64,000 nt of DNA, taken from positions 20,311,143 to 20,375,142 of the forward strand of contig OZ025265.1 in the NCBI GenBank assembly GCA_964019135.1, written 5' to 3'. Shown in pieces: positions 16,435 to 64,000 of this stretch (positions within the stretch are counted from its first letter, which is position 1; each line of letters starts with the position of its first letter). The position numbers were made by a program, and so were the translations under genes. The DNA comes from Arenicola marina (lineage: Eukaryota; Annelida; Polychaeta; Arenicolidae). The notes under the pieces are model-generated. The model saw nothing but the letters and a program-made list of their open reading frames with translations, was not told the DNA's origin and did no database searches.

Positions 16435-17018
16435 AGAGGATATTTGGTGTACAGCAGCAACTTAGCCAATAGTGGCCAACACACATTGGCCCGTGTGAAG
16501 TGAAAATGGGTCCAAATACTAATCATACACTCAGTTATAACGAAAGCTATTCAATGCAAACTTATCAAACATACTTCTTTGTGCTCTCCGTTTGAAAGAC
16601 CGGTTAATCTGACAAAGTTTGCGATGCGCCTGCATGATTACAAAATTCAAACACTTCTGGCGATTAGAGAACCGCATTTTCGTTTCTGCGTATAGTATCC
16701 GTACAGGCAGTTAGCAAAATATAACACTTATTTCAGTGTTAAGTTGTTAACTGCTCCCAAGATGGAGGTGGCGATTTCTGGTAATCTACCTTTAGCGGTG
16801 TACTTGACTAAACTTTCTTGGACATTTCGGGTGGGATGAAGAGTATGGGGAGGCAAAGGAGATTTAAAGGTCAGCACCCATCGAACGCACAGTTATGGAC
16901 GATAATAGCGTTTTTTTTTTTATAAAGTCTTCATTCTGCATATTGTTTTTCTTCGAGAGTTAGTCCTTATTTTTTTTTGGTCTTTTAGGAAACGTATCCT
17001 TAGGTTACATGGTCTCAT
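16435..17018. repeat. Unique flank of the duplicated block, copy 1, left part
   Basis: Matches 21062 onward almost base for base, with a few substitutions and a 38-bp inversion (16611-16648 against 21239-21276). No coding sequence recognised. Confidence 0.93.
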
Positions 17019-17978: not shown

Positions 17979-18835
17979 TTGCGAGCGCACGTTAGGCAGG
18001 ACTGAGCATTCGCTTTATAGAAGATTTCTGTAGGTAAAATCACGAAAACGTGAAGGGTCCAGGATCTTGCACAAACAATAATATCGCAGAATCAATTAAA
18101 CAGACGGACGAAATGCCACACAGCAGTCTGTTTTATCTGAAGTGAACCAGATTTATCTATACCGGTCTCACAGATCTTTACCCAGGCTAATGGTATAATA
18201 TATAATGCCTTTGGCCATAGCTCAAGAAATTTGAACTACACGAAATGGTTGCCAGCAGCCGTGCCATAAAGAAAAAAACTTCAGATATTATCGTACAAAC
18301 AGAGTCGCTCACATTCCAACTGATCCGTTCCGATAACCTCACTATGTACCTCATAATAGTGTAACATTCATAATAGTAATGAAAGACAAATGCTTGGCGG
18401 ATGTATATGAAACAATTCTCATAAATAATCCTGTCATTACTTTGCAATAGAGGGCTCTGTTCGCCAGCTTTATTAGTGTACTGGGATGACAATGATTGGC
18501 TCTATACACACACTTTATTCAGCTCACACGCTGCATCAAAGACGTTTATTTCACACAAGCCGTTCTCACTTTTAAAACACGAAGGTTGGCTCGGGACGAG
18601 GTCAGAATCCTCATCCTCAGTCGTTATTGCATGCGAATACAATCAATTTGCTGTGGTCCGGTTTTTCTCCTTTGACAAACAGTTAAATCTTTCAAGTCAA
18701 AAGCCTTCGTCCGGCGAATCGTAGACTTCGTCAAGTCTTCGTCTTAAAAGTATATCCGAAATGCCATTCTAGGCCTCATGCCGGTCGACATGGCTTAAAT
18801 AACTTGTCCTCGTTAATGGCAGTGATCTGGTCATC
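17979..18835. repeat. Unique flank of the duplicated block, copy 1, right part
   Basis: Nearly identical to 21648-22500. An open frame of 101 codons on the - strand (18187-18492) is the same in both copies simply because the DNA is. It has no recognisable similarity or start context, so I do not call it a gene. Confidence 0.92.
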
Positions 18836-20383
18836 TCGCGTTGCACTCCCACCCTCTGAGCATCTGGCGTTGCACTCCCACCTTCCGAGCATCTGGCGTT
18901 GCATTCCCACCCTCAGAGCATCTGGCGTTGCACTCCCACCCTCCAGGCATCTGGCGGTGCACTCCCACCCTCAGAGCATCTGGCGTTGCACTCCCACCCT
19001 CCAAGCATCTGGCGTTGCATTCCCACCCTCCGAGCATCTGGCGTTGCACTCCTACCCTCAGAAAATCTGGCAATGCCCTCCCACCCTCCAAGCATCTAGC
19101 GTTGCCCTCCCACCCTCCAAGCATCTGGCGGTGCACTCCCACCCTCTGACCATCTGGCGTTGCACTCCCACCCTCCGAGCATCTGGCGGTGCACTCCCAC
19201 CCTCCAAGCATCTGGCGGTGCACTCCCACCCTCCAAGAATCTGGCGTTGCACTCCCACCCTCTGACCATCTGGCGGTGCACTCCCACCCTCCAAGCATCT
19301 GGCGGTGCACTCCCACCCTCCAAGCATCTGGCGGTGCACTCCCACCCTCCAAGCATCTGGCGGTGCACTCCCACCGTCCAAGCATCTGGCGGTGCACTCC
19401 CACCCTCCAAGCATCTGGCGGTGCACTCTCACCCTCCGAGCATCTGGCGGTGCATTCCCACCCTCAAAGCATCTGGCGTTCCACTCCCACCCTCCGAGCA
19501 TCTAGCGTTGCCCTCCCACTCTACAAGCATCTGGCGTTGCACTCCCACCCTTTGACCATCTGGCGGTGCACTCCCACCCTCCAAGCATCTGGCGGTGCAC
19601 TCCCACCCTCCAAGCATCTGGCGGTGCACTCCCACCCTCCAAGCATCTGGCGGTGCACTCCCACCCTCCAAGCATCTTGCGGTGCACTCCCACCCTCCAA
19701 GCATTTGGCGTTGCACTCCCACCCTCTGAGCATCTGGCGGTGCACTCCCACCCTCCGAGCATCAAGCGTTGCCCTCCCACCCTCCAAGCATCTGGCGTTG
19801 CACTCCCACTCTCCGAGCATCTGGCGGTGCACTCCCACCCTCCAAGCATCTGGCGGTGCACTCCCACCCTCCAAGCATCTGGCGGTGCACTCCCACCCTC
19901 CAAGCATCTGGCGGTGCACTCTCACCCTCCGAGCATCTGGCGGTGCATTCCCACCCTCAAAGCATCTGGCGTTCCACTCCCACCCTCCAAGCATCTGGCG
20001 TTGCACTCCCACCCCCCCCACAAGCATCAGGCGTTGCACTCCCACCCTCCAAGCATCTGGCGTTGCACTCCCACCCTCCGAGCATCTGGCGGTGCACTCC
20101 CACCCTCCAAGCACCTCGCGTTGCATTCCCACCCTCCAAGCATCTGGCGTTGCATTCCCACCCTCCAAGCATCTGGCGTTGCACTCCCACCCTCCAAGCA
20201 TCTGGCGTTGCATTCCTACCCTCAGAGCATCTGGCGTTCTACTCCCTACCCTCAGAGCATCTGGCGTTCCACTCCCACGCTCCGAGCATCTGGCGTTGCA
20301 CGCACTCCACTCTCAGAGCATCTGGCGTTGCCCTCCCACCCTCCAAGTATCTGGCGTTGCACTCCCACCCTCTGAGCGTTACA
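18836..20383. repeat. 29-bp minisatellite array A, copy 2 (~53 units)
   Basis: Same 29-bp unit and similar variant order to array A copy 1. One irregular unit near 20012-20035 has an expanded C run. It begins at the duplication junction GTCATCTCGCGTTGCACTCC. Confidence 0.98.
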
Positions 20384-21061
20384 CCCTTGCTAGGGACATC
20401 TGGTGTACGTACCCTGGTCCTGGGGACATCTGGTGAACGTACCCTGGTCCTGGGGACATCTGGTGAACGTACCCTGGTCCTGGGGACATGGTGTACGTAC
20501 CCTTGTCCTGGGGACATCTGGTGTACGTACCCTGGTCCTGGGGACATCTGGTGTACGTACCCTTGTCCTGGGGACAACTGGTGTACGTACCCTTGTCATG
20601 GGGACAACTGGTGTACGTACCCTGGTCCTGGGGACAACTGGTGTACGTACCCTTGTCCTGGGGACAACTGGTGTACGTACCCTGGTCCTGGGGACATCTG
20701 GTGTGCGTACCCTGGTCCTGGGGACATCTGGTGTGCGTACCCTGGTCCTGGGGACATCTGGTGTACGTACCCTGGTCCTGGGGACATGGTGTACGTACCC
20801 TGGTCCTGGGGACATGGTGTACGTACCCTGGTCCTGGGGACATCTGCTGTACGTACCCTGGTCCTGGGGACATCTGCTGTACGTACCCTGGTCCTGGGGA
20901 CATGGTGTGCGTACCCTGGTCCTGGGGACATCTGGTGTGCGTACCCTGGTCCATGGGACACCGGGTGTACGTATCCTGGTCCTGGGGACATGGTGTACGT
21001 ACCCTGGTCCTGGGGACATCTGGTGTACGTACCCTGGTCCATGGGTGTACGCACCCTGGTC
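20384..21061. repeat. 30/26-bp minisatellite array B, copy 2 (~23 units)
   Basis: Same unit as array B copy 1, with copy-specific variants (GTGAACGTACC, ATCTGCTGTACG, more GACAACTGG units) and slightly fewer units. Confidence 0.97.
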
Positions 21062-22505
21062 AAGAGGATATTTGGTGTATAGCAGCAACTTAGCCAATAG
21101 TGGCCAACACACATTGGCCCGCGAGAAGTGAAAATGGGTCCAAATACTAATCATACACTCAGTTATAACGAAAGCTATTCAATGCAAACTTATCAAACAT
21201 ACTTCTTTGTGCTCTCCGTTTGAAAGACCGGTTAATCTGAATTTTGTAATCATGCAGGCGCATCGCAAACTTTGTCAAACACTTCTGGCGATTAGAGAAC
21301 CGCATTTTCGTTTCTGCGTATAGTATCCGTACAGGCAGTTAGCAAAATATAACACTTATTTCAGTGTTAAGTTGTTAACTGCTCCCAAGATAGAGGTGGC
21401 GATTTCTGGTAATCTACCTTTAGCGGTGTACTTTACTAAACTTTCTTGGACATTTCGTTTGGGTTGAAGAGTATGGGGAGGCAAAGGGGATTTAAAGGTC
21501 AGCACCCATAGAATGCACAGTTATGGACGATAATAGCGTTTTTTTTGGTCTAAAGTCTTCATCCTGCATATTGTTTTTCTTCGAGAGTTCGTCCTTATTT
21601 TTTTTTTGTCTTTTAGGAAACGTATCCTTAGGTTACATGGTCTCATTGCGAGCGCACGTTAGGCAGGACTGAGCATTCGCTTTATAGAAGATTTCTGTAG
21701 GTAAAATCACGAAAACGTGAAGGGTCCAGGATCTTGCACAAACAATAATATCGCAGAATCAATTAAACAGACGGACGAAATGCCACACAGCAGTCTGTTT
21801 TATCTGAAGTGAACCAGATTTATCTATACCGGTCTCACAGATCTTTACCCAGGCTAATGGTATAATATATAATGCCTTTGGCCATAGCTCAAGAAATTTG
21901 AACTACACGAAATGGTTGCCAGCAGCCGTGCCATAAAGAAAAAAACTTCAGATATTATCGTACAAACAGAGTCGCTCACATTCCAACTGATCCGTTCCGA
22001 TAACCTCACTATGTACCTCATAATAGTGTAACATTCATAATAGTAATGAAAGACAAATGCTTGGCGGATGTATATGAAACAATTCTCATAAATAATCCTG
22101 TCATTACTTTGCAATAGAGGGCTCTGTTCGCCAGCTTTATTAGTGTACTGGGATGACAATGATTGGCTCTATACACACACTTTATTCAGCTCACACGCTG
22201 CATCAAAGACGTTTATTTCACACAAGCCGTTCTCACTTTTAAAACACGAAGGTTGGCTCGGGACGAGGTCAGAATCCTCATCCTCAGTCGTTATTGCATG
22301 CGAATACAATCAATTTGCTGTGGTCCGGTTTTTCTCCTTCGACAAACAGTTAAATCTTCAAAGTCAAAAGCCTTCGTCCGGCGAATCGTAGACTTCGTCA
22401 AGTCTTCGTCTTAAAAGTATATCCGAAGTGCCATTCTAGGCCTCATGCCGGTCGACATGGCTTAAATAACTTGTCCTCGTTAATGGCAGTGATCTGGTCA
22501 TCTCG
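21062..22505. repeat. Unique flank of the duplicated block, copy 2
   Basis: Second copy of 16435-18835 without the ~960-bp TIR element and with the 38-bp segment 21239-21276 inverted. Similarity to copy 1 stops at GGTCATCTCGC (about 22505), where unique DNA begins. Confidence 0.93.
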
Positions 22506-40792: not shown

Positions 40793-43700
40793 GTGAGAGC
40801 TGGTAATAGGATACTCCCAGTTTGACAATGAATTGGCTCATCCTACCAACATGACCAAGTGTTTACATGTTAAAAATGTTTAGGCTTCAAGTTAGGGTAA
40901 ATCTGTAATGAACAGATGAAGTCCAGGGGACCGTTTCACTAAGAGTTACGAGCTCGTAACCGTATCTTTTACATGCTAATTTAACGACAGATCGGAATTT
41001 TACGAGCCACTGAATTGAGGGTTATACTGCGATTATTGGGGTGCAGCCATCTTCGTGCAATTTATTTTCCCCCAATATTATTCAAAATCATGTTTGCCAT
41101 ATATTTATGATGAATTCAACATATTTGATGTCTCTCCGGGCCGGCAATCCAATGTTTTAATTTTACGAGCAAAAGTTGCGAGATCTTAGTGAAATGATCC
41201 CCAGATTCTTAAATCTTGTCATTTTATCTATTAGTTATATTATATTGTACATCATAGCTGACATATATGCCAAAGATCTTTTTTTGTAAGATGTAAATGT
41301 AACAATCAGTTAAGAATACTTAAAATGGGTAAGAATGTGATAATATGTGATATAACAGGAAAAGGTTGATGAATTTATTTGCTTCTTGTTTTATTGCATG
41401 GTATACTCCCATGAATGTTATATTTAGTCACTGGCCTTAAAATTCTTTAAAAAGAAAATTTAAAATTAGCATTTCGAATATAGATTAAAAACTGGAACAA
41501 TATGCTGTACTCTTTACTTTGACATAAAGTACTTTATTTTGTATCACAAGATGGAGCCAAGGAAGCCATTCAGGTCCTGAACATCTTGAGGAAAAGGATT
41601 GTATTATTAACAGGTAGGTGTATACAAAGGCTATGTACAACTTAATTTAGTTCCTCCTTATTACCTATATTCCCTTTTCTCCTTTCTCTTTGCTGTAAAA
41701 CCATCCTTCCTTGTCTCCTAACGGCAGGTGGATCGGTGGCCATGTCTGTGTGGTCTCAGGATAAAGATCCCATGTCCTTCTTTGCAAAGAGTAGGGGGTT
41801 ATCCCAGGGACATGGCTCCGCTCTTCCCTTCCTTCTCCCATTGACGCGAAATCACCAGAATTGGTTAAAGCGTCCTGAATACACAACCAAATAACCAAAT
41901 CTTACCTGATCCTTACCGGATACGCGATAGCTGGGCCCTTAAATTCTCATTGTCGTGCCCCTAGTACCGGTACTGGAGAGAGATGGTGCATACAGTCCCA
42001 CTGTACAGACACATGTCCCTAGTACGGGTACAGACACGTGCCCCTAGTACCGACTGGAGAGAGATGGTGCATACAGTCCCACTGTACAGACACATGTCCC
42101 TAGTACTGGTACTGGAGAGAGATGGTGCATACTGTCCCACTATACAGAGACGTGCCCCTAGGAGAGAGATGGTGTATACAGTCTACAGACCCTGTCCCCT
42201 AGTACCGACTGGAGAAAGATGGTGCATACAGTCCCACTGTACAGACCCTGTCCCCTAGTACCGGTACTGGAGAGAGATGGTACATACAGTCTCACTGTAC
42301 AGACACGTGCCCCTAGTACCGACTGGAGAGAGATGGTGCATACAGTCCCACTGTACAGACACGTGCCCCTAGTACCGACTGGAGAGAGATGGTACATACA
42401 GTCTCACTGTACAGACACGTGCCCCTAGTACCGACTGGAGAGAGATGGTGCATACAGTCCCACTGTACAGACACGTGCCCCTAGTACCGACTGGAGAGAG
42501 ATGGTGCATACAGTCCCACTGTACAGACACGTGCCCCTAGTACCGACTGGAGAGAGATGGTGCATACAGTCCCACTGTACAGACACGTGCCCCTAGTACC
42601 GACTGGAGAGAGATGGTGCATACAGTCCCACTGTACAGACACGTGCCCCTAGTACCGACTGGAGAGAGATGGTGCATACAGTCCCACTGTACAGACACGT
42701 GCCCCTAGTACCGACTGGAGAGAGATGGTGCATACAGTCCCACTGTACAGACACATGTCCCTAGTACCGACTGGAGAGAGATGGTGCATACAGTCCCACT
42801 GTACAGACACGTGCCCCTAGTACCGACTGGAGAGAGATGGTGCATACAGTCCCACTGTACAGACACATGCCCCTAGTACCGACTGGAGAGAGATGGTGCA
42901 TACAGTCCCACTGTACAGACACGTGCCCCTAGTACCGACTGGAGAGAGATGGTGCATACAGTCCCACTGTACAGACACGTGCCCCTAGTACCGACTGGAG
43001 AGAGAGGGTGCATACAGTCCCACTGTACAGACACGTGCCCCTAGTACTGGTACTGGAGAGAGATGGTGCATACAGTCCCACTGTACAGACACGTGCCCCT
43101 AGTACCGGTACTGGAGAGAGATGGTGCATACAGTCCCACTGTACAGACACGTGCCCCTAGTACCGACTGGAGAGAGATGGTGCATACAGTCCCACTGTAC
43201 AGACACGTGCCCCTAGTACCGACTGGAGAGAGATGGTGCATACAGTCCCACTGTACAGACACGTGCCCCTGGTACCGACTGGAGAGAGATGGTGCATACA
43301 GTCCCACTGTACAGACACGTGCCCCTAGTACCGACTGGAGAGAGATGGTGCATACAGTCCCACTGTACAGACACGTGCCCCTAGTACCGACTGGAGAGAG
43401 ATGGTGCATACAGTCCCACTGTACAGACACGTGCCCCCAGTACCGACTGGAGAGAGATGGTGTATACAGTCCCACTGTACAGACACGTGCCCCGAGTACC
43501 GACTGGAGAGAGATGGTGCATACAGTCCCACTGTACAGACACGTGCCCCTAGGAGAGAGATGGTGCATACAGTCCCACTGTACAGACACGTGCCCCTAGT
43601 ACCGACTGGAGAGAGATGGTGCATACAGTCCCACTGTACAGACACATGCCCCTAGTACCGACTGGAGAGAGATGGTGCATACAGTCCCACTGTACAGACA

Positions 43701-46700
43701 CGTGCCCCTAGGAGAGAGATGGTGTATACAGTCTATAGACACGGTCCCCTAGTATCTGTACTGGAGAGAGATGGTGCATATACCACTGATCAACCAGTTA
43801 TCAACTAGCGTGATATGACCTTGCGGTTTAAAGTGTTAAGGTACATTGTCATACCAACTAACAATAAATTTTATCTCTGCCATTTAAAGACGAAGACAAA
43901 GTACTTTTCAGCCTGATTTTAAGGTTTTAATCGATTGGCGGATTATTTTACTAACTCTAATCTCGTTGGTGGTATTAAAAGAAGGCTGGTGGTAATGCTT
44001 GGGTAAGAAGGTTGTCAGAAACACTGGGAGAAGATATGGGGGTAAAATGAGGGGGTAAAACCAACCGCTGAAAGGGAAGGAAGCCGAGGCTGCATTCCTC
44101 CAGTACCAATCTTTGTATATATGCCTCTTTGAGGTAATTAACGCCGGCGGTATATCTCCAGGCGGAATTCATTATTAAGGAAACTTTGTACCAAGATTCA
44201 AAGCGACTTTATGGGGAAAAAAATGGACACGTTAAGCATAGAGGCTTGCCTGCCTGGTGGCGCATTCCTTTATCTCATTGCAAAACTCAGGGCCCAGTTT
44301 TGCGGTGTTAGCGGTCGGTTAGACATGAAGTACATGTAGTTTAGTTCATCGAGTCGATTACGTCAGTGAAGTGGGTAAAAATAGTGGACAGATGTCCAAG
44401 CGCCGAGTCTTTAGTTATTCCGTCTTGAGCGGACCGTAAAATACAAGACTCGTGACATCGCCGGCGTGCTTTAGTTTTTCGTTGATGGTGTATAGTGGTG
44501 ATGTATTACCTACATGTGTGTTCACTGTATGGAACGAGAACTTTTACGTGGGTGTTAAGCGGCAATATGTATGTTAAAGGTGTGCAGTGAATCATCCGCA
44601 ATCTGCACGTTAATCTCGTACGTTACGCTGGTACAGTAGGCCTACTGGTTTTGTTATCTGGGAAGACGGTGGCCGAACAGTTGTGTGAGCTGTTCTCGGT
44701 CTTGCCGAGTCGTAGTTTACCCGAAAACTATCCTACATTTATCGTGTTTATGACCTATAAACCGGCGAATGCGAACCGTTTACCATATTAAACGCTATGC
44801 TGTCGTAGCAAGCTAAAATCTTTTTAACGAGGGGACCTGTGTTAATTTTTCGAAAGGGTACAAGATGTGTTTTGCTGTATTAAATACGTAAAGCTCGTTA
44901 TTTTTATGTTTGATTGTTGAAAACTATAATGTTGCAAGAAATTGCAGCTGATTTGACCGTTTTTCAAGAATCTTGAAATTTGCCCCCGGCCGACAGCAGC
45001 GGTAAAAGCGGACCTTGCGTAGCGCCACCGGGCGGGGAGCTTGCAAGTTTAGAAGAAATCTGCGGGAGCAGCGCTGTACATGTCTGCTGTAGCTCGGCGA
45101 GCAATCGACTCTAGGTTATTTTGGCGGTTCGTTGTAAAGATCACTGCAACAAATCAAAACCTTTCGACCATCTGTGCAACTAGGAGGCCGCTTTTTTCTA
45201 ATTTCGATGCGTTGTAAGTTTGGCGCATGTTCTAAAATTGAGATCAACTTTGCGATGTCGAAACTGTCAACCAATCAACGTCGAGTATTTTGTTGGCCAA
45301 TTAGCGTCGAGACGAACTAATGGTTTTTGTCGTGATCCAGGTGGCTTGCTCAGGCCCCGCCCGTTTGTAAGTCGGTTGGTACGCAATCTCAGGCTTATCT
45401 CTTCAGAAAAAGCTTTCTTCGGCTTCACCGTGATTGGGACCCTGAAGTGTTTGCCTTGGCCGTGATAGCTGGCTATCCAGCGGTATGTTTACACATTTAG
45501 GTGTTTTTGCCGCTTCGAGATCCAGCTAATTGTTTTCAACGAGATTGAGAAAGGGATGTAATATCAAAGGTCAAGGTGGGACGTATTTAGTAGCTATCAA
45601 GTTCTAGGATTCAGTATAGAAGAAGTTGAAATGATGCATTGGACAAATCCTCAGTTCCCGATCCGCCCCTCGATCTCGGGGTCGCATTATGAAAACGAAT
45701 GATTCCCAACTTGCTATGTGAAGTACGCAACTACCGCGGCCGTTTCTTCTGTTCTGCATGAACTTTTGAAAACCTTGGCGGTCCAGTGTTCAGACTTTCC
45801 ATTTGTTCATTTACACTTTACCGTTACTCACACTCAGTATATATGTATATATACATGTATGATATATAGATGTTGTGCCTCGCGGACAAAGCTTTCACGG
45901 TCCAGTTCCCGGCAGGAAGGTGACGCGCGCTGTACTAAAACACGGCGCAGACGCGGTTTGAAATGACTCTCTGTTTACCCGCCAGGTATTCCATGGCCAA
46001 CCTGGGCCTGGACCAGGTGGAGGGACAAGGGGTGGGGAGGCGGGAGCGGACGGGTGGGGGGGGGGGGTAGGTGGCGGTGGTGATGTGAGGGGTTGAGGGG
46101 GAGCTAGGTGTGCATGTAGTGTCGGTGTTGTATTCCGATACAAGGAACCGCCACTGCGTCGTCACCGCCATTAGAAACGCCACCCAACCCCGACCCCAAC
46201 CGCCACTATATCGCTACCAGCACCCCCCCACTGTCCGCACCCCCCCCCCCCCCCCGCCGTCACCGCTGCCGCAGCCGCCACAACCGGCGTTATAGCGCAT
46301 TGTGATGCATTATACGTCGGGTTCGTGTTTACGATCGCTTGGGTCCGGAACCTGCTTCGGCATAACTTGCGCCGCGACGCTCACAACTCTCGACTTGTCC
46401 AAAGGGCCTGGAATTGGTTGAGGCCAGTGTTGATTTCCGTTCGGCAGATCGGTTTGGTTTGTACGAGGAATTAAAGGTCGTTAGCTTGACGGTAGCCTTT
46501 ATGGGAGAATTTAGAAGGCAATGGGCGGATCCGGGGCTTGCGGGAGGGAGGTGGTGATCAGGGCGGGGTTGGGGGTGGTGGTGGTGGTGGGGGGGGTGGG
46601 GGTGGCTGGGGTTATAGTACATGAGGACGCCCTGCACTAACACCGATAAAGGGAAACCTGAAGCTGAATATCACCCCCCATACAGTTTGTGGACCTGATA

Positions 46701-52700: not shown

Positions 52701-55700
52701 ATTGAGGATTAACGGCACTGTAATGCTGTATCGTACCATACCGGTTGGGTTCTGTCGAAATTGCTTTAGAAGGCTACATGAAAAACAGTTGCAAAAAAGA
52801 GTCAAGTAGCGAGTAGATATCAATAAAATCATGCAAGTCGTTAATTGTGACACGATAAATTATAAACGGTATTACAACCGTGAATCAGTAATAATCCAAG
52901 TAGTGTGGAGTCAATGGATGGCTTTAAAACCCTGAAAGTGTCCTATCTTCCGTGTTCAAATTGATTATTGCATTAAATGCTAGGCGTGAGTAATACGTGA
53001 GGTATTTCTGAAGCGCTTGCATGAACGACCAGAGGGGAGATTTAATGTGGACAAGCGTCGTTGAATCTCCTAGTGTCTCCATCAAGTGTATGTGTGTTGT
53101 GATGATATGTTGTTTGGGGTAGGAAGACTGGTTTGGTTTATTTGCGGCAGTTGGCGTGGAGTATAGGCCACGACCAGACCATGATGACAATCCCACAATT
53201 GATTACATTACATTCTGGGAAGTGGGATAAAATACTTCATATTGTATATTCGAAACCTCCTAATTTTCGATTACCAGCATATTCAGCTTGGCTATGATGG
53301 ATTTATTTCACAGTTTCAGCTTCTTATTTACGTTGTCTACTGTGGAAGTTCTGAAATGCATGTGCACGCAAAGGGAACAAAACTAACGGCAGGCACGAAA
53401 GACGCCTTGGCTCTATGATTTGTTTGTCTCATCTCTGACAGCGAACTGTCGACGTTGTGGTGTTAGTACAGTGTGTACTATAAGAATAAACTAGTTCCCG
53501 GTGTGAGTGAAACTTACTTTGTGGAATGTGAGCGGGTCGCTACGTACAGACAACGTGAATACACACCAGATGTGGAGCCTCTGAGGCTAGCCTCTGAGGC
53601 CGGAGGGGTGGTGGTGGTGGTGGTGGGGGGGGGGGGGGGGGTAGCCATTTCGCATGTCGATTTTGAAAAAAACGTCCTTGTCATGAACATGTGGATTATA
53701 AGAAGAGGTTTATGTCGCGTGTCGCAAAGTCTTATGTCGCCTGTCGATGCCCCAATGTGTCGATTTTTCACATCGCTGTATCGCCGTGTCGAAAATGGCC
53801 CTCGGGGGCACTAGATATGCTCGCACCGCAAGTCGCTACATGGCTGCCAATGTCCACATGTCTATCCTTCTGGATATTTTTACACTGAGAAAGGCTGGGA
53901 GGATGGAACGCGCCTGTCAGAACATAATCTGTCTACCTAATAATCTACAAGTTGTGATTGGTTTACTGTTAATAGTCAGAAATGGAATACAATTGAGTTT
54001 AGACTAAATTGGGCCAAGAAACCTTCCGGGACGGTGAAGAATGAATGCAGGAAACATGCCACAGAATAGGTGCCAGGGCTGGGGTTCGAACCCAGGACCT
54101 TTTGATCTGCTGTCTAGTGCGCTAACCACTGCACCAGGGAGGCCCCCAGGACCTTTTGATCCGAGGTCTAGTGCGCTAACCACTGCACCAGGGAGACCCC
54201 CAGGACCTACTGATCTGCTGTCTAGTGCGCTAACCACTACACCAGGGAGGTCCCCAGGACCTGTTGATCTGCGGTCTAGTGCGCTAACCACTACACCAGA
54301 GAGGCCCCCAGGACCTATTGATCCGAGGTCTAGTGCGCTAACCACTACACCAGGGAGGTCCCCAGGACCTGTTGATCTGCGGTCTAGTGCGCTAACCACT
54401 ACACCAGGGAGGCCCCCAGGACCTATTGATCCGAGGTCTAGTGCGCTAACCACTACACCAGGGAGGTCCCCAGGACCTACTGATCTGTTGTCTAGTGCGC
54501 TAACCACTACACCAGGAAGGCCCCCAGGACCTACTGATCTGCGGTCTAGTGCGCTAACCATTACACCAGGAAGGCCCCCAGGACCTACTGATCTGCGGTC
54601 CAGTCCATTACACCAGGGAGGCTCCCAGGACCTATTGATCTGAGGTCTAGTGCGCTGATCACTACACCAGGAAGGCCCCCAGGACCTACTGATCTGCTGT
54701 CTAGTGCGCTAACCACTACATCAGGGAGACCCCCAGGACCTATTGATCTGAGGTCTAGTGCGCTGATCACTACACCAGGAAGACCTCCAGGATCTATTGA
54801 TCTGCTGTCTAGTGCGCTAACCACTGCACCAGGAAGGCCCCCAGGACCTATTGATCTGAGGTCTAGTGCGCTAACCACTACACCAGGAAGGCCCCCAGGA
54901 CCTACTGATCTGAGGTCTAGTGCGCTAACCACTACACCAGGAAGGCCCCCAGGACCTATTGATCTGAGGTCTAGTGCGCTGATCACTACACCAGGAAGGC
55001 CCCCAGGACCTATTGATCTGAGGTCTAGTGCGCTGATCACTACATCAGGAAGGCCCCCAGGACCTATTGATCTGAGGTCTAGTGCGCTGATCACTACACC
55101 AGGAAGGCCCCCAGGACCTACTGATCTGCTGTCTAGTGCGCTAACCACTACACCAGGAAGGCCCCCAGGACCTATTGATCTGAGGTCTAGTGCGCTGATC
55201 ACTACACCAGGAAGGCCCCCAGGACCTATTGATCTGAGGTCTAGTGCGCTGATCACTACACCAGGAAGGCCCCCAGGACCTACTGATCTGCTGTCTAGTG
55301 CGCTAACCACTACATCAGGGAGACCCCCAGGACCTATTGATCTAAGGGTCTAGTGCGCTGATCACTACACCAGGAAGGCCTCCAGGATCTATTGATCTGC
55401 TGTCTAGTGCGCTAACCACTGCACCAGGAAGGCCCCCAGGACCTATTGATCTGAGGTCTAGTGCGCTAACCACTACACCAGGAAGGCCCCCAGGACCTAC
55501 TGATCTGAGGTCTAGTGCGCTAACCACTACACCAGGAAGGCCCCCAGGACCTACTGATCTGAGGTCTAGTGCGCTAACCACTACACCAGGAAGGCCCCCA
55601 GGACCTTTTGATCCGAGGTCTAGTGCGCTAACCACTACACCAGAGAGGCCCCCAGGACCTTTTGATCCGAGGTCTAGTGCGCTAACCACTACACCAGGAA

Positions 55701-58700
55701 GGCCCCCAGGACCTTTTGATCCGAGGTCTAGTGCGCTAACCACTGCACCAGTAAGGCCCCCAGGACCTATTGATCTGAGGTCTAGTGCGCTGATCACTAC
55801 ACCAGGAAGGCCCCCAGGACCTATTGATCTGAGGTAGAGTGCGCTAACCACTACACCAGGGAGACCCCCAGGACCTACTGATCTGAGGTCTAGTGCGCTA
55901 ACCATTACACCAGGAAGGCCCCCAGGACCTATTGATCTGAGGTCTAGTGCGCTAACCACTACACCAGGAAGGCCCCCAGGACCTATTGATCTGCGGTCCA
56001 GTCCATTACACCAGGGAGGCTCCCAGGACCTATTGATCTGCGGTCTAGTGAACTGACCACTACACCAGGGAAGCCCCAGGACCTACTGATCTGCGGTCTA
56101 GTGCGCTAACCATTACACCAGGGAGACCCCCAGGACCTACTGATCTGAGGTCTAGTGCGCTAACCATTACACCAGGAAGGCCCCCAGGACCTATTGATCT
56201 TGAGGTCTAGTGCGCTGATCACTACACCAGGAAGGCCTCCAGGATCTATTTATCTGCGGTCTAGTGCGCTAACCACTACACCAGATAGGCCCCCAGGACA
56301 TACTGATCTGCTGTCTAGTGCGCTAACCACTACACCAGGAAGGCCCCCAGGACCTATTGATCTGAGGTGTAGTGCGCTAACCACTGCACCAGGGAGGCCC
56401 CCAGGACCTTTTGATCCGAGGTCTAGTGCGCTAACCACTGCACCAGGGAGACCCCCAGGACCTACTGATCTGCTGTCTAGTGCGCTAACCACTACACCAG
56501 GGAGGTCCCCAGGACCTGTTGATCTGCGGTCTAGTGCGCTAACCACTACACCAGAGAGGCCCCCAGGACCTATTGATCCGAGGTCTAGTGCGCTAACCAC
56601 TACACCAGATAGGCCCCCAGGACCTGTTGATCTGCGGTCTAGTGCGCTAACCACTACACCAGGGAGGCCCCCAGGACCTACTGATCTGCGGTCTAGTGCG
56701 CTAACCATTACACCAGGAAGGCCCCCAGGACCTACTGATCTGCGGTCCAGTCCATTACACCAGGGAGGCTCCCAGGACCTATTGATCTGAGGTCTAGTGC
56801 GCTGATCACTACACCAGGAAGGCCCCCAGGACCTACTGATCTGCTGTCTAGTGCGCTAACCACTACATCAGGGAGACCCCCAGGACCTATTGATCTGAGG
56901 TCTAGTGCGCTGATCACTACACCAGGAAGACCTCCAGGATCTATTGATCTGCTGTCTAGTGCGCTAACCACTGCACCAGGAAGGCCCCCAGGACCTATTG
57001 ATCTGAGGTCTAGTGCGCTAACCACTACACCAGGAAGGCCCCCAGGACCTACTGATCTGAGGTCTAGTGCGCTAACCACTACACCAGGAAGGCCCCCAGG
57101 ACCTATTGATCTGAGGTCTAGTGCGCTGATCACTACACCAGGAAGGCCCCCAGGACCTATTGATCTGAGGTCTAGTGCGCTGATCACTACACCAGGAAGG
57201 CCCCCAGGACCTATTGATCTGAGGTCTAGTGCGCTGATCACTACACCAGGAAGGCCCCCAGGACCTACTGATCTGCTGTCTAGTGCGCTAACCACTACAC
57301 CAGGAAGGCCCCCAGGACCTATTGATCTGAGGTCTAGTGCGCTGATCACTACACCAGGAAGGCCCCCAGGACCTATTGATCTGAGGTCTAGTGCGCTGAT
57401 CACTACACCAGGAAGGCCCCCAGGACCTACTGATCTGCTGTCTAGTGCGCTAACCACTACATCAGGGAGACCCCCAGGACCTATTGATCTGAGGTCTAGT
57501 GCGCTGATCACTACACCAGGAAGGCCTCCAGGATCTATTGATCTGCTGTCTAGTGCGCTAACCACTGCACCAGGAAGGCCCCCAGGACCTATTGATCTGA
57601 GGTCTAGTGCGCTAACCACTACACCAGGAAGGCCCCCAGGACCTACTGATCTGAGGTCTAGTGCGCTAACCACTACACCAGGAAGGCCCCCAGGACCTAC
57701 TGATCTGAGGTCTAGTGCGCTAACCACTACACCAGGAAGGCCCCCAGGACCTTTTGATCCGAGGTCTAGTGCGCTAACCACTACACCAGAGAGGCCCCCA
57801 GGACCTTTTGATCCGAGGTCTAGTGCGCTAACCACTACACCAGGAAGGCCCCCAGGACCTTTTGATCCGAGGTCTAGTGCGCTAACCACTGCACCAGTAA
57901 GGCCCCCAGGACCTATTGATCTGAGGTCTAGTGCGCTGATCACTACACCAGGAAGGCCCCCAGGACCTATTGATCTGAGGTAGAGTGCGCTAACCACTAC
58001 ACCAGGGAGACCCCCAGGACCTACTGATCTGAGGTCTAGTGCGCTAACCATTACACCAGGAAGGCCCCCAGGACCTATTGATCTGAGGTCTAGTGCGCTA
58101 ACCACTACACCAGGAAGGCCCCCAGGACCTATTGATCTGCGGTCCAGTCCATTACACCAGGGAGGCTCCCAGGACCTATTGATCTGCGGTCTAGTGAACT
58201 GACCACTACACCAGGGAAGCCCCAGGACCTACTGATCTGCGGTCTAGTGCGCTAACCATTACACCAGGGAGACCCCCAGGACCTACTGATCTGAGGTCTA
58301 GTGCGCTAACCATTACACCAGGAAGGCCCCCAGGACCTATTGATCTTGAGGTCTAGTGCGCTGATCACTACACCAGGAAGGCCTCCAGGATCTATTTATC
58401 TGCGGTCTAGTGCGCTAACCACTACACCAGATAGGCCCCCAGGACATACTGATCTGCTGTCTAGTGCGCTAACCACTACACCAGGAAGGCCCCCAGGACC
58501 TATTGATCTGAGGTGTAGTGCGCTAACCACTGCACCAGGGAGGCCCCCAGGACCTTTTGATCCGAGGTCTAGTGCGCTAACCACTGCACCAGGGAGACCC
58601 CCAGGACCTACCGATCTGCTGTCTAGTGCGCTAACCACTACACCAGGGAGGTCCCCAGGACCTGTTGATCTGCGGTCTAGTGCGCTAACCACTACACCAG

Positions 58701-61700
58701 AGAGGCCCCCAGGACCTATTGATCCGAGGTCTAGTGCGCTAACCACTACACCAGATAGGCCCCCAGGACCTGTTGATCTGCGGTCTAGTGCGCTAACCAC
58801 TACACCAGGGAGGCCCCCAGGACCTATTGATCCGAGGTCTAGTGCGCTAACCACTACACCAGGGAGGTCCCCAGGACCTACTGATCTGTTGTCTAGTGCG
58901 CTAACCACTACACCAGGAAGGCCCCCAGGACCTACTGATCTGCGGTCTAGTGCGCTAACCATTACACCAGGAAGGCCCCTAGGACCTACTGATCTGCGGT
59001 CCAGTCCATTACACCAGGGAGGCTCCCAGGACCTATTGATCCGAGGTCTAGTGCGCTAACCACTACACCAGGAAGGCCCCCAGGACCTACTGATCTGAGG
59101 TCTAGTGCGCTAACCACTACACCAGGAAGGCCCCCAGGACCTATTGATCTGAGGTCTAGTGCGCTGATCACTACACCAGGAAGGCCCCCAGGACCTATTG
59201 ATCTGAGGTCTAGTGCGCTGATCACTACACCAGGAAGGCCCCCAGGACCTATTGATCTGAGGTCTAGTGCGCTGATCACTACACCAGGAAGGCCCCCAGG
59301 ACCTACTGATCTGCTGTCTAGTGCGCTAACCACTACACCAGGAAGGCCCCCAGGACCTATTGATCTGAGGTCTAGTGCGCTGATCACTACACCAGGAAGG
59401 CCCCCAGGACCTATTGATCTGAAGTCTAGTGCGCTGATCACTACACCAGGAAGGCCCCCAGGACCTACTGATCTGCTGTCTAGTGCGCTAACCACTACAT
59501 CAGGGAGACCCCCAGGACCTATTGATCTGAGGTCTAGTGCGCTGATCACTACACCAGGAAGGCCTCCAGGATCTATTGATCTGCTGTCTAGTGCGCTAAC
59601 CACTGCACCAGGAAGGCCCCCAGGACCTATTGATCTGAGGTCTAGTGCGCTAACCACTACACCAGGAAGGCCCCCAGGACCTACTGATCTGAGGTCTAGT
59701 GCGCTAACCACTACACCAGGAAGGCCCCCAGGACCTACTGATCTGAGGTCTAGTGCGCTAACCACTACACCAGGAAGGCCCCCAGGACCTTTTGATCCGA
59801 GGTCTAGTGCGCTAACCACTACACCAGAGAGGCCCCCAGGACTTTTGATCCGAGGTCTAGTGCGCTAACCACTACACCAGGAAGGCCCCCAGGACCTTTT
59901 GATCTGAGGTCTAGTGCGCTGATCACTACACCAGGAAGGCCCCCAGGACCTATTGATCTGAGGTCTAGTGCGCTAACCACTACACCAGGGAGACCCCCAG
60001 GACCTACTGATCTGAGGTCTAGTGCGCTAACCATTACACCAGGAAGGCCCCCAGGACCTATTGATCTGAGGTCTAGTGCGCTAACCACTACACCAGGAAG
60101 GCCCCCAGGACCTATTGATCTGCGGTCCAGTCCATTACACCAGGGAGGCTCCCAGGACCTATTGATCTGCGGTCTAGTGAACTGACCACTACACCAGGGA
60201 AGCCCCAGGACCTACTGATCTGCGGTCTAGTGCGCTAACCATTACACCAGGGAGACCCCCAGGACCTACTGATCTGAGGTCTAGTGCGCTAACCATTACA
60301 CCAGGAAGGCCCCCAGGACCTATTGATCTTGAGGTCTAGTGCGCTGATCACTACACCAGGAAGGCCTCCAGGATCTATTTATCTGCGGTCTAGTGCGCTA
60401 ACCACTACACCAGAGAGGCCCCCAGGACCTACTGATCTGCTGTCTAGTGCGCTAACCACTACACCAGGAAGGCCCCCAGGACCTATTGATCTGAGGTGTA
60501 GTGCGCTAATCACTACACCAGAGAGGCCCCCAGGACCTACTGATCTGCTGTCTAGTGCGCTAACCACTACATCAGGAAGGCCTCCAGGATCTGTTGATCT
60601 GCGGTCTAGCGGGCTAACCACTACACCAGAGAGGCCCCCAGGACCTATTGATCTGAGGTCTAGTGCGCTAACCACTGCGCCAGGAAGGCCCCCATGATCT
60701 ATTGATCTGAGGTCTAGTGCGCTAACCACTACACCAGATAGGCCCCCAGGACCTACTGATCTGTTGTCTAGTGCGCTAACCACTACACCAGGAAGGCCCC
60801 CAGGACCTATTGATCTGAGGTGTAGTGCGCTAACCACTACACCAGAGAGGCCTCCAGGACCTACTGATCTGCTGTCTAGTGCGCTAACCACTACATCAGG
60901 AAGGCCTCCAGGATCTGTTGATCTGCGGTCTAGTGGGCTAACCACTACACCAGAGAGGCCCCCAGGACCTATTGATCTGAGGTCTAGTGCGCTAACCACT
61001 ACATCAGGAAGGCCTCCAGGATCTGTTGATCTGCGGTCTAGTGGGCTAACCACTACACCAGAGAGGCCCCCAGGACCTATTGATCTGAGGTCTAGTGCGC
61101 TAACCACTACATCTGGAAGGCCTCCAGGATCTGTTGATCTGCGGTCTAGTGGGCTAACCACTACACCAGAGAGGCCCCCAGGACCTACTGATCTGCTGTC
61201 TAGTGCGCTAACTACTACACCAGGAAGGCCCCCAGGACCTATTGATCTGAGGTCTAGTGCGCTAACCACTACACAAGAGAGGCCCCCAGGACCTACTGAT
61301 CTGCTGTCTAGTGCGCTAACCACTACATCAGGAAGGCCTCCAGGATCTGTTGATCTGCGGTCTAGTGGGCTAACCACTACACCAGAGAGGCCCCCAGGAC
61401 CTATTGATCTGAGGTCTAGTGCGCTAACCACTACATCAGGAAGGCCTCCAGGATCTATTGATCTGCGGTCTAGTGCGCTAACCACTGCGCCAGGAAGGCA
61501 TCCAGGACCTATTGATCTGCGGTCTAGTGCGCTAACCACTACACCAGAGAGGCCCCCAGGACCTATTGATCTGCGGTCTAGTGTACTGACCACTACACCA
61601 GGGAAGCCCCAGGACCTACTGATCTGCGGTCTAGTGCGCTAACCATTACACCAGGGAGACCCCAGGACCTACTGATCTGCTGTCTAGTGCGCTAACCATT

Positions 61701-64000
61701 ACACCAGGAAGGCCCCCAGGACCTATTGATCTGAGGTCTAGTGCGCTGATCACTACACCAGGAAGGCCTCCAGGATCTATTGATCTGCGGTCTAGTGCGC
61801 TAACCACTACACCAGATAGGCCCCCAGGACCTACTGATCTGCTGTCTAGTGCGCTAACCACTACACCAGGAAGGCCCCCAGGACCTATTGATCTGAGGTG
61901 TAGTGCGCTAACCACTACACCAGGAAGGCCCCCAGGACCTATTGATCTGAGGTCTAGTGCGCTAACCACTACACCAGATAGGCGCTCGTTGCCAGTGAAC
62001 GCCACTCATTTCCGAATGATATAAAATTCCGGGGAATCCAGACCAGATGGAGAGCCATTTGAGACAAAACATCCTCTCATTATTACAGTTAATGGTTTTT
62101 TTCCGGCTTCACACAAAATATCCCACAAAATGCCCCCTATTTTCTTATGGTTTATATATGTTATTATGACATCAGTCTGGTAATAGTTTACGATAAAACT
62201 GCAAACGCTTTCATCTCTTCATATCGATTAATATACGGACCAGGCTGTAAGGCCTTTTCGCATTTATCCTGGAGCGACCTGCGTGTGCTATATACACTGT
62301 AACGCTTAACCCTTATGTTGCCAGTGTATGACACTTTGCATGGTCTCCGTGTTAACGTCGCATAGATGAGACATGGAGGCGATCTGTTGTCGCGGCCCGT
62401 GTGCTGGTGTAGCTATCTGATGCCTTCCGCTCTATGGAAGTTATATGCTGTATAGCATCACCTTGCTGTGGGTGCACTGTGGATATGATACTGTGATACA
62501 GTTCAATGGGCCGCGATGTATGGGGAGTCTGATGGAAGCGCTTAAGACCTGGATTTGTAGATTATCGATCGGGGTGTTTGTGTTGTATTATGCCGTTATC
62601 ATGGTTATTATTAGCAGTAGGGTTAACTAACTATTTATGTCGTTCTCCTAGGGGTTGGGAATGCTAAAAAAACCTGGTGACTAGAGCGCGGGGCTTTGTT
62701 GATTATCGAAATGCCAGCCAGGCCATCCAAATGGTCGAGTGGTTAGCTCGCTAGGGTGGATTGAATGAAATCTGCAATACCTGTGCCATGTTTGGTCTCC
62801 AAATTTTAAAACGCGGCGAAATGCTGCAAAAGTGTGCTTATCGCTTGTATTGTTACAAAATTCAATAGTCTGAGGCATTGGTTTTTGCGTCATGATATAT
62901 CTTTAAAATCGACACTGGCCTCTGTCAATTTCCACTAAGCACGATATAAAAAGTGTTCTACACGAGTATTTTCTCAATATTAAAATCATAACATTTTGCT
63001 TTTCGTTTATCCAGTATGAGCATTAAGAATGCTCTACATTTGCTGTTTGAGTCTTCCTACTTTTGTCTTACCTTTTGCTTATATTTTCCTACCTTTGTCC
63101 TACCATTTGCTTATATTTTCCTACTTTTGTCCTACTTTCTATTTTTTTCATTGCTACTTTTATCCTACTATTTGTATGTTGGACAGCTTGAATATGGTGT
63201 GTCTACTTGTTTCAGCACGCGTTGGAAGGCAGCATACATGCCGTGTACGTCATCCAGGGTGACAAACAGAAGTTTAACCTTTCAAGCTTTCGACGAGAGA
63301 AACACACCTACGGCTTTGAGGTAAGTACCTCTTTTATGTTTGCGATCGAACAACCTGCACTGTTCCTTAAAGGTGTAGTTACTTCTCCGGTGCAAGGTTA
63401 TGGCAGATAGTCCTTATTATTACTACCATTATTAAGTACATGTCATACTGTTCGCGTTACCCAGCCCTCCACCCCCCCACCCCCTCACCCCCCCCCCCCA
63501 AAAATAAAGAAAAAAGGTTCATCTGGCTTTAAATATGTTTGTTTAACTATTGAAAGTGGATATCTCAAAAAAAAGACGATCAAGTTATCCCTGTTCTGTT
63601 CTGTGTGGGATTGCTACAGTGTGGGCCATGTGTAAGCTAGTTAATATCTAAGTTTTTTAGCTAGAATAAATAATGGTGAACATTAAACATAAGTATTTTT
63701 CATTTGTGCAATCGTACAGCGTACACTATTCCCAAAAAGTACAGTTACATTTCCGGTCTAAGGTTATGCTAGATAATCCCCTTAAGGACATGTGTAAGGT
63801 AGTTGTTTTGTAAGTTTTTTTAGTTAAATCAATCTTGGTGACAATTTAATGTAAATTAATGTTAATCGTTTTCAGCCGCAGTTCGTCGCACTTTCCAAAC
63901 TGGATTCCGTTGTGAGTCAGAACCAGCTGACAGCGGACTTTGGGGGAACATTGCCGTATAATCACGAGATATGGCTGGAAAACAGAGTGGTAGGGACTGT
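39841..64000 (+). CDS. SEC14 (CRAL-TRIO) domain protein, Trio/Kalirin/MCF2L/SESTD1 group, partial at the 3' end
   Basis: Exons: 39841-40792, 41551-41613, 49537-49651, 49870-49960, 63216-63320 and 63876 to about 63989 (GTG|GTAGGG looks like a donor). Phases join throughout. The first is a ~317-codon Ser/Tyr/Gln/Arg-rich disordered segment. The others encode a SEC14 lipid-binding domain: KEAIQVLNILRKRIVLLTGG, RDRRKGPVLTFPDQPNFDDF, AYLAIIPSDESMRNGFTILI, DNRHNAYKNSKALFKLLQ, SIHAVYVIQGDKQKF, QNQLTADFGGTLPYNH, EIWLENRV. GG[RK]D[RK]RxGP[IV]LTFP, PSxxxxxxGFT[VI][IL][IV]D and QLTxDFGGxLxYxHxxWLxxR are hallmarks of the SEC14 domain that precedes spectrin repeats in Trio, Kalirin, MCF2L and SESTD1. In those proteins it binds phosphoinositides and targets the protein to membranes. 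Downstream domains (spectrin, RhoGEF) are beyond the window, so the exact family member is unresolved; a PLEKHG4/quattro-type RhoGEF is also possible. Confidence 0.86.
40926..41202. mobile_element. MITE with GTTTCACTAAG ends
   Basis: GGGGACCGTTTCACTAAG at the left pairs with CTTAGTGAAATGATCCCC at the right, and inner TTACGAGC/GCTCGTAA blocks extend the match. About 277 bp with no coding, placed 130 bp after the donor of the Tyr-rich exon. Confidence 0.8.
41700..41896 (+). mobile_element. tRNA-derived SINE (family A), 5'-truncated
   Basis: Starts inside the element at CTAACGGCAGGTGGATCGGT (B box and tRNA head absent) and continues with the shared body to AATACACAACC. Confidence 0.88.
41957..43786. 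repeat. 56-bp minisatellite array (~32 units) in a SEC14-gene intron
   Basis: Unit is CCCTAGTACCGACTGGAGAG, AGATGGTGCATACAGTCCCA, CTGTACAGACACGTGC. Central units (42420-43480) are almost identical. Edge units are diverged or partly deleted (for example GTGCCCCTAGGAGAGAG), as expected when turnover is strongest in the middle. Short frames on both strands follow the 56-bp period and are not genes. Confidence 0.97.
43787..46800. other. Intron sequence, no exon seen
   Basis: Includes GC-richer DNA around 44.3-45.5 kb and G-rich/C-rich runs at 46000-46110 and 46230-46260. A SINE-tail-like GCGTGATATGACC stretch lies at 43809. No splice-bounded exon fitting the SEC14 protein was found, as expected because the flanking exons join in phase. 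Confidence 0.45.
46805..46912 (+). mobile_element. SINE 3' fragment with (ACCA)n tail
   Basis: GGAGACATGGCTCCGCTCTA matches the family A/B body, then GGTTAAAGAGCCCTGCTTTA and ACCAACCAACCAACC. The head is missing. Confidence 0.6.
47230..47600. repeat. ~185-bp tandem duplication
   Basis: Two diverged direct copies sharing CACCTTTCCG(A/T)AGTTTACATT, CGTGACNTTACCCNGTGTCCT and ACTGTACTNNTACAGGTAAT. They start near 47230 and 47405; the second contains an inserted poly-G run. Confidence 0.75.
48654..48893 (+). mobile_element. tRNA-derived SINE (family A)
   Basis: GGTCGGCCCGGTAGCTCAGT head, GTTCGAGCCCCGCTGT B box, then the shared body with a ~15-bp deletion (GGTTCCATGTCC) and an AATATAAAACCAACC tail. 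Confidence 0.92.
49250..49504 (+). mobile_element. tRNA-derived SINE (family B) with (AATC)n tail, next to an exon
   Basis: The head CCAGTAGGTAGCTCGTTTGG and B box GTGGTTCGAATCCCACC differ from family A, but the body (GGGAGTTACTCCCGGAGACT, GGCGCGATATGACG, GGTTAAAGCGTC) is related. It ends AATCAATCAATCAATCAAT about 33 bp before the SEC14 exon at 49537. Confidence 0.85.
50074..50333 (+). mobile_element. tRNA-derived SINE (family A), full length
   Basis: GGGGCCGGCGCGACAGCTCA head, GGTTCGAGCCCCGCTG B box, complete body and AATAACCAAGCAACC tail. One of the best-preserved copies. Confidence 0.93.
50522..50710. mobile_element. GTGTCG-rich short TIR element, copy c
   Basis: Same body and right end as copy a (GTGTCGCCATTTACCCCTTC then CAGACCC), with duplicated inner motifs (ATGTCGATTTTTC). 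The left terminus is not clear. Confidence 0.72.
50711..53635. other. Intron sequence, no exon seen
   Basis: Contains G runs near 51018 and 51520, C runs near 52100 and 52150, and otherwise single-copy DNA. No supported exon, RNA gene or recognisable element. Confidence 0.4.
53636..53812. mobile_element. GTGTCG-rich element, diverged copy d
   Basis: Repeated TGTCG motifs with similar spacing (GCATGTCGATTTTGAAAA, ATGTCGCGTGTCGCAAAG, GTGTCGATTTTTCACATCG) but termini not recognisable. Confidence 0.5.
54071..54143 (-). other. tRNA-like sequence at the edge of the 54-bp array
   Basis: Read on the - strand: CCTCCCTGGTGCAGTGGTTA (A-box match TGGTGCAGTGG), then GCGCACTAGACAGCAGATCA, then AGGTCCTGGGTTCGAACCCC (B-box match). 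Box spacing fits a tRNA or SINE head, but the anticodon stem pairs poorly and no acceptor stem is clear, so a pseudo-tRNA or SINE head is more likely than a working gene. Confidence 0.6.
54075..61985. repeat. ~8-kb, 54-bp tRNA-derived satellite array (~146 units) with higher-order repeats
   Basis: Unit on the + strand: ACCAGGAAGGCCCCCAGGAC, CTATTGATCTGAGGTCTAGT, GCGCTAACCACTAC, 54 bp. On the - strand each unit keeps an A-box-like TGGTGTAGTGG. Only the left edge keeps a B box (54081-54093). Because 54 is a multiple of 3, 18-residue periodic open frames run for over 1 kb on both strands. Shared variant units define blocks repeated every 2.0-2.26 kb, and from about 60400 a 108-bp dimer (CTCCAGGATCTGTTGATCTG unit alternating with a CCCCCAGGACCTATTGATCT unit) dominates. 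It lies in the 13-kb intron between SEC14 exons 49870-49960 and 63216-63320. Confidence 0.97.
61986..63052. other. Intron sequence after the 54-bp array
   Basis: Single-copy DNA with no supported exon. A tRNA-like stretch (ATGGTCGAGTGGTTAGCTCG) lies near 62731, possibly another SINE-head remnant. Confidence 0.4.
63053..63178. repeat. Pyrimidine-rich tandem repeat just before a SEC14 exon
   Basis: About four units of CCTACTTTTGTCCTACC followed by (T)TTTGCTTATATTTT. It ends about 40 bp before the acceptor at 63215 and could extend its pyrimidine tract. Confidence 0.85.

What the first reader, a model, noticed from the sequence alone, without database searches (positions are those of the whole stretch)
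54075..61985. 8-kb intronic megasatellite built from a decapitated tRNA/SINE head
Each 54-bp unit, read on the - strand, has an A-box (TGGTGTAGTGG), a D-arm-like GTTAGCGC and an anticodon-arm-like segment, then stops at GGTCCTGG where the TpsiC arm would start and jumps back to the acceptor side. Only the outermost unit (54071-54143) continues into a B box, GGGTTCGAACCCC. The simplest reading is that a tRNA-like element duplicated between two CCTGG/CTGGG sites and the internal piece expanded to about 146 copies. A tandem of A-boxes with a single B-box is an unusual layout; it might bind TFIIIC/Pol III weakly or act as an insulator, but that is speculation.
Basis: partly seen in the sequence, partly recalled or inferred. 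Interest (0 to 1): 0.8.

Follow-up and report, generated by a model that had tools for sequence, protein, structure and literature searches.

The report
Satellite array grown from SINE heads
An 8-kb array of 54-bp repeats is the multiplied front end of a small jumping element (a SINE), and the same genome holds younger copies of that element with 2 to 45 front ends, so it shows stages of how a jumping gene can turn into satellite DNA.

Summary
The array is real: 147 head-to-tail ~54-bp units at 54094-61987, minus strand, with one B box at its 3' end. The unit is nucleotides 1-54 of a dispersed tRNA-type SINE of about 190 nt (2,319 exact head/B-box 25-mers). It is not unique: 3,734 exact tandem-head junctions occur genome-wide. 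Of 38 loci that I classified (6 chosen for consensus-like heads), 19 carry two or more heads on a near-pristine SINE body. In 17 of the 18 whose far end was reached, one target-site duplication encloses all heads plus the SINE. These 17 carry 2 to 45 heads. Arrays therefore start at single SINE insertions, at or after retroposition, and grow in place. Two young copies carry head variants otherwise found only in distant arrays. How the first extra head forms is open: reverse-transcriptase template jumping, array-templated repair, or multi-headed source RNA. I found no sign of a Pol III or insulator role: the A box is hardly more conserved than the rest. SINE-derived satellites are known in squamates (PMC10702118). 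This is a new variant of that kind, unusually clear about its birth.

The parts
54094..61987 (-). 147 tandem SINE-head units of about 54 bp (array consensus differs from the SINE consensus at 2 of 54 positions; mean 3.7 edits per 54-bp unit)
54094..54147 (-). H0, the head that runs on into the SINE body
54082..54092 (-). the only B box (GGTTCGAACCC)
53979..54093 (-). diverged (old) SINE body and tail remnant; no target-site duplication at the two ends of the element (score 4; true ones score 10 or more)
   Evidence: scale
61934..61987 (-). outermost, degraded head (GAGCGCCTATC...), 5' end of the array

Best explanation
The array is a SINE-derived satellite. A tRNA-type SINE (about 190 nt: GGGGG-led head with A and B boxes, body, ATTCC/ATTTC tail) inserted here by target-primed reverse transcription. 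At or after insertion its first 54 nt were duplicated in front of it, nucleotide 54 joined to the SINE's 5' end, giving a multi-headed SINE inside one target-site duplication. The heads then multiplied in place by ordinary tandem-repeat turnover to 147 units, while body and insertion ends decayed. Shown: unit = SINE head; dispersed SINE; many arrays; multi-headed near-pristine copies bounded by target-site duplications; one dominant junction; private head variants shared between distant arrays and young copies. Inferred: that the window's own array went through these stages (its ends are too old to show a duplication), and the step that makes the first extra head. My split for that step: reverse-transcriptase template jumping about 40%; repair templated by existing arrays about 30%; transcription of an already multi-headed source about 20%; simple slippage about 10%. 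No function is needed; I think it most likely has none.
For: Head 54040-54150(-) matches dispersed places over ~100-111 bp at 84-90% (40 of 805 first-look candidates scored), with the same body, tail and, where inspected, flanking duplications. Counts: 2,319 exact SINE 25-mers, 1,468 exact 65-nt pristine head/B-box strings, 3,734 tandem junctions. Of 38 loci classified, 19 are multi-headed with a body within 4 edits of consensus; 17 of the 18 with the 5' end reached have a duplication of 11-17 bp (0-1 mismatch) within 2 nt of the outermost head; cross-pairing control 0 of 306 at that score. Head numbers of the 18: 2 (seven), 3 (four), 6, 9, 9, 10, 13, 14, 45. Junction register, from a pattern that leaves it free: 54-bp form in 54 of 59 rows, 53 in 5, 52 in 0 (the script put two of the 54 rows elsewhere because their heads carry a 4-nt insertion). 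L095 (C20): one head's 41-mer recurs only in a C7 array of 11 exact units. L081: a three-variant head recurs only in an array 2.8 Mb away.
Against: The window's own array shows no duplication and its body is old, so its history is by analogy. One young locus (L067, 14 heads, body 0 edits) has no recognisable duplication. At the 17 older multi-headed loci none was recognised (3 were open-ended, and for several the body was too diverged for a fair test). Six of the 38 loci were picked for consensus-like heads, which favours young ones, and the loci were selected with a GGGGG join. Multi-headed rows are rarer among pristine heads (17 of 1,468) than among non-pristine ones (21 of 851 rows; Fisher p = 0.026), so some doubling may happen well after insertion. 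A second junction exists (59-bp units that include a B box, L061, L064, L066), so the 54-bp join is dominant, not unique.
Confidence: 0.8

Rival explanations
1. First extra heads are made by the reverse transcriptase: at the 5' end of the SINE RNA it jumps to nucleotide ~54-57 of the same or another head-bearing RNA, copies a head again, and so on.
For: The unit begins at the element's own first nucleotide and the register is nearly constant (54 of 59 rows, none at 52), as expected if the cDNA 3' end sets the join; slippage across GGG/GGGGG would also allow 52 and 53. Of the 11 young two- and three-headed loci, 6 have all heads identical to consensus. L095 and L081 carry array-type heads on bodies with 0 edits. 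The exact L095 head pair was found nowhere else. LINE template switching is established (PMC4476161, passages seen).
Against: No joins at other GGG runs up to 30 nt past the B box when the GGCCT start is intact (0 matches). No 5'-truncated outermost head in the 17 duplication-bounded loci. The multi-headed fraction is lower in the youngest class. The join falls inside a predicted T-arm helix, with nothing that marks it as a jump site.
Confidence: 0.4
2. Existing arrays serve as repair templates: a break in the head of a single-headed SINE is repaired by copying from an array (gene conversion / SDSA), importing one or more heads in register.
For: Explains the near-constant register, the array variants in L081 and L095, and the complete outermost heads.
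Against: 6 of 11 young two- or three-headed loci have only consensus heads, although even in the young array L069 only 9 of 45 heads are consensus. In the C8 array the L081 variant never sits next to itself, whereas L081 has it twice in a row. The first array still needs another origin.
Confidence: 0.3
3. Source SINEs are themselves multi-headed, and Pol III starting at different A boxes yields RNAs with different numbers of heads, which retropose as such.
For: Near-constant junction, complete outermost heads, variable head number.
Against: For L095 and L081 no source with those exact heads plus a young body was found in the assembly; the C7 array has an old body. Four body types (T, C and deletion forms of both) would each need a multi-headed source.
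Confidence: 0.2
4. The array is a functional Pol III/TFIIIC or insulator element.
For: A-box string exact in 69 of 147 units.
Against: One B box for 147 units; A box hardly more conserved than other positions; similar arrays are scattered over many loci and vary from 2 to 147 heads.
Confidence: 0.03

Closest known systems
SINE-derived satellites (sSat1-3) of squamate reptiles, PMC10702118 (parts 1-4 of 5 of the text read)
   Same: Tandem units taken from part of a tRNA-type SINE; from a few to hundreds of units; an end unit that runs on into the SINE terminus; alternating sub-variants in some loci.
   Different: Here the unit is the extreme 5' 54 nt with A box but no B box (snake unit: positions 42-108 with B box). 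The window's array lies inside its chromosome (C20, 20.4 of 33.0 Mb), while sSats are reported to prefer subtelomeres. Here target-site duplications enclose the heads on near-pristine bodies; the parts I read name unequal recombination for the first duplication and do not report such duplications.
PcH-sat of limpets, from a Nin-SINE (PMC11121367, passages seen)
   Same: Satellite DNA sharing a segment with a SINE in an invertebrate.
   Different: 179-bp unit from the SINE's 3' part without A and B boxes, mainly pericentromeric, about 10% of the P. caerulea genome.
[quoted passage not shown] 1998; known to me only through its citation in passages of PMC9659126)
   Same: Tandem array grown out of a SINE.
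   Different: Very short unit (GGCAGA) inside B1, not the element's whole 5' end.
LINE template-switch chimeras such as U6/L1 (PMC4476161, passages seen)
   Same: Chimeric retrocopies bounded by one target-site duplication, from reverse transcriptase changing template.
   Different: Those join different RNAs once or twice; here the same head is repeated. That template switching acts here is not shown.

Membership tests
SINE-derived satellite | unit equals part of a dispersed SINE of the same genome | tested here: met
SINE-derived satellite | at least four tandem units, terminal unit running on into the SINE end | tested here: met
   147 units, one continuing into B box and body
SINE-derived satellite | subtelomeric preference (reported for squamates; a property rather than a definition) | tested here: inconclusive
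   The window's array is at 20.4 of 33.0 Mb of C20. Of the first 100 places, on C1-C3 only, those at C2 60.3 (of 61.5) and C3 2.3 Mb lie near an end, the others do not; no statistics made.
tRNA-type SINE (parent element) | A and B boxes in a tRNA-like 5' head | tested here: met
   Rfam tRNA 22.6 bits for young copy L075 and 24.8 for the window head, both below the gathering score of 29; box motifs recalled and read by eye
tRNA-type SINE (parent element) | dispersed copies with target-site duplications and a short repeat tail | tested here: met
tRNA-type SINE (parent element) | 3' end shared with a partner LINE | not tested
   no LINE search was made
functional tRNA gene | complete tRNA fold recognised | tested here: not met
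   ARAGORN none in the window and 7 loci (bacterial-code setting); Rfam nothing at gathering in the window and 4 loci
Pol III / TFIIIC insulator | occupancy by TFIIIC or Pol III | not testable with these tools
   no ChIP or RNA data

The most novel reading that the evidence does not exclude
The SINE's retroposition machinery stutters on its own 5' head: during reverse transcription the enzyme repeatedly jumps from the RNA's 5' end back to nucleotide ~54 of the same RNA or of RNAs transcribed from existing arrays, so about 1-2.5% of insertions are born with several heads, each a seed for a satellite, and old arrays reseed new ones in trans.
Probability: 0.35. Interest if true: 0.75.

Novelty: new variant of a known kind. 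Interest (0 to 1): 0.5.

Why it matters
How a satellite starts is usually invisible because the first steps are erased. Here one genome holds copies with 2, 3, 6, 9, 10, 13 and 45 heads on near-pristine SINE bodies inside target-site duplications, plus an old array of 147. That makes the birth of a satellite from a retroposon directly testable, and it points to sequence passing between distant arrays and new insertions.

Tried and rejected
Rejected: a lone local oddity (one search shows many junctions at many places); a tRNA gene; plain slippage between GGG runs as the main route (the 52-bp form is absent from 59 rows; no joins at other GGG runs, which covers only joins with an intact GGCCT start within 30 nt of the B box). 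A higher-order repeat in the window array was looked for and not seen (mean unit differences 5.6-6.5 at every lag from 1 to 20). My first reading that L088 lacked a target-site duplication was an error of display; searches show it. My idea that L086's shared variant points to one template failed: the variant is widespread (64 places including 6 in L086). I first counted '17 of 17 pristine rows at 54 bp' as evidence; that is circular, because the pristine string itself demands five Gs. A free tally by eye of the rows that are consensus from CCTCCC on gives 20 of 21 at 54 and 1 at 53 (written down, not computed). Host identity was not established. Searching papers for stretches of the SINE sequence gave 0 papers. 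'Not in print' is not claimed beyond the searches.

Full report
What is there. On the minus strand, 54094-61987 consists of 147 units: 131 of 54 bp, 7 of 55, 6 of 46 and 3 of 53 (TRF 54091-61977). The unit consensus is GGGGGCCTTCCTGGTGTAGTGGTTAGCGCACTAGACCTCAGATCAATAGGTCCT, two positions away from the SINE head consensus; 54-bp units differ from the SINE consensus by 3.7 edits on average. Only the unit at 54094-54147 runs on into a B box and a diverged SINE body (53979-54093). Neighbouring units are no more alike than distant ones. The two ends of the element show no target-site duplication (score 4).

The parent element. A search of the window's own genome (867 Mb, 762 contigs, unnamed) with the 111-bp head found dispersed matches, 40 of 805 first-look candidates being scored. 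The fetched copies share a head, a body of about 130 bp and a tail of ATTCC or ATTTC units, with flanking duplications in those that I inspected. Exact counts: 2,319 for a 25-mer across the head/B-box border and 1,468 for a 65-mer pristine head and B box. The tRNA model of Rfam sees the head at 22.6-24.8 bits, under its gathering score.

Many arrays. The pattern GGTCCTGG-N(0-25)-CCTSCCTGGTGYARTGGTTAGC has 3,734 exact matches, with 0 for the reversed control (the first 100 places were listed). One array, on C7, lies just upstream of a stretch that I recognise from memory as dynein-heavy-chain-like; that was not tested (L098).

Stages of growth. I classified 38 loci: 3, 29 of the 30 loci given (one duplicates a locus), and 6 chosen from the remaining 24 matches because they looked consensus-like. 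The pattern demands a five-G join, so these loci say nothing about the register. Two (L062, L072) are single-headed, their target-site duplication happening to end in TCCT. Nineteen multi-headed loci have bodies within 4 edits of consensus; 17 are older. Among the 19, one (L092) was not followed to its far end. Of the other 18, 17 have a duplication within 0-2 nt of the outermost head that matches the sequence after the tail; cross-pairing the ends of different loci gave 0 of 306 at that score (maximum 9; the true ones score 10-15). Head numbers run 2 (seven loci), 3 (four), 6, 9, 9, 10, 13, 14 and 45. L069 has 45 heads (2,430 bp), a perfect 14-bp duplication and no body edit, yet 23 distinct substitution variants among its 54-bp heads, so growth to dozens of units can be fast. 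L067 (14 heads) has no recognisable duplication.

The junction. A pattern that leaves the join free gave 59 head-head-B-box matches: two bases between CCTGGG and CCT (54-bp form) in 54 rows, one (53) in 5, none (52) in 0. The script printed 52, 5 and 2, because two rows with a 4-nt insertion in the head were parsed otherwise; by eye both have the 54 form at the join. Slippage between GGG and GGGGG would allow all three. No join was found at other GGG runs up to 30 nt past the B box when the GGCCT start is intact. A different 59-bp unit that includes the B box is present in L061, L064 and L066, so other joins do occur. Independence of the rows is not claimed; three rows are one locus on C17, and C19 and C7 hold near-identical pairs.

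Exchange between loci. L095 on C20 (three heads, 11-bp duplication, body 0 edits) has a head whose 41-mer recurs only in an array on C7 (11 units). That array ends in an old body, and the exact L095 pair of heads was found nowhere else. L081 on C8 has two heads with three shared variants found otherwise only in an array 2.8 Mb away, where that variant is never next to itself in the stretch fetched. By contrast L088's variant heads are nearly private: five of six matches lie in L088 itself and one on C11. I read this as head sequence passing between distant loci, by RNA or by DNA repair; these data do not say which.

Timing. Of pristine heads 17 of 1,468 rows (1.2%) have a second head in front; of non-pristine ones matching the 25-mer, 21 of 851 rows (2.5%; Fisher p = 0.026). 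Multi-heading is thus present in the youngest copies but may also accrue later.

Function. The A box is not singled out by conservation (0.934 against 0.922 elsewhere; rank 17 of 54), and there is one B box. Nothing here points to a role; experiments alone could settle it.

Known kinds. SINE-derived satellites were described in squamates (PMC10702118, parts 1-4 of 5 read). Its authors see longer end units and invoke unequal recombination; they were unsure whether such satellites occur outside squamates. A limpet satellite carries part of a Nin-SINE (PMC11121367, passages). Template switching or jumping by LINE reverse transcriptases is established (PMC4476161 and PMC2881922, passages). The present case adds a 5'-terminal unit, target-site duplications around multi-headed copies, and signs of array-to-copy exchange.

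Noticed in passing
window 14031-16452 and 18832-21045: The same pair of minisatellites (29 bp then 30 bp) occurs twice, and ORFs at 18190-18501 and 21857-22168 start identically: probably a local duplication.
   Followed up: no
L061, L064, L066: Arrays or mixed arrays with a 59-bp unit that includes both A and B boxes (in L066 ...GGGTTCGAATC|TTCCTTGGTG...), a different join from the 54-bp unit.
   Followed up: partly
L021-L024 (C17:53741-73242) and L017-L018 (C12:9.27 Mb): The SINE sits inside other, larger tandem repeats and seems to have been copied along with them.
   Followed up: no
C3:6550041-6561548: Head-variant hits recur three times with about 5.54-kb spacing, suggesting arrays inside a larger tandem duplication.
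   Followed up: no
L099 (C8:5785501-5787000): A pristine single-headed SINE is nested in the old SINE body at the end of the C8 array, with TAATCTGGGG on both sides.
   Followed up: no
window 62728-62759 (+): A second tRNA-like string (CAAATGGTCGAGTGGTTAGCTCGCTAGGGTGG), perhaps the head of another SINE family.
   Followed up: no
window 2056-2409 and 5797-6156 (+): Armadillo-repeat (beta-catenin-like) coding exons.
   Followed up: partly
window 42028-43711: 56-bp minisatellite, 30 copies, 93% matches.
   Followed up: no
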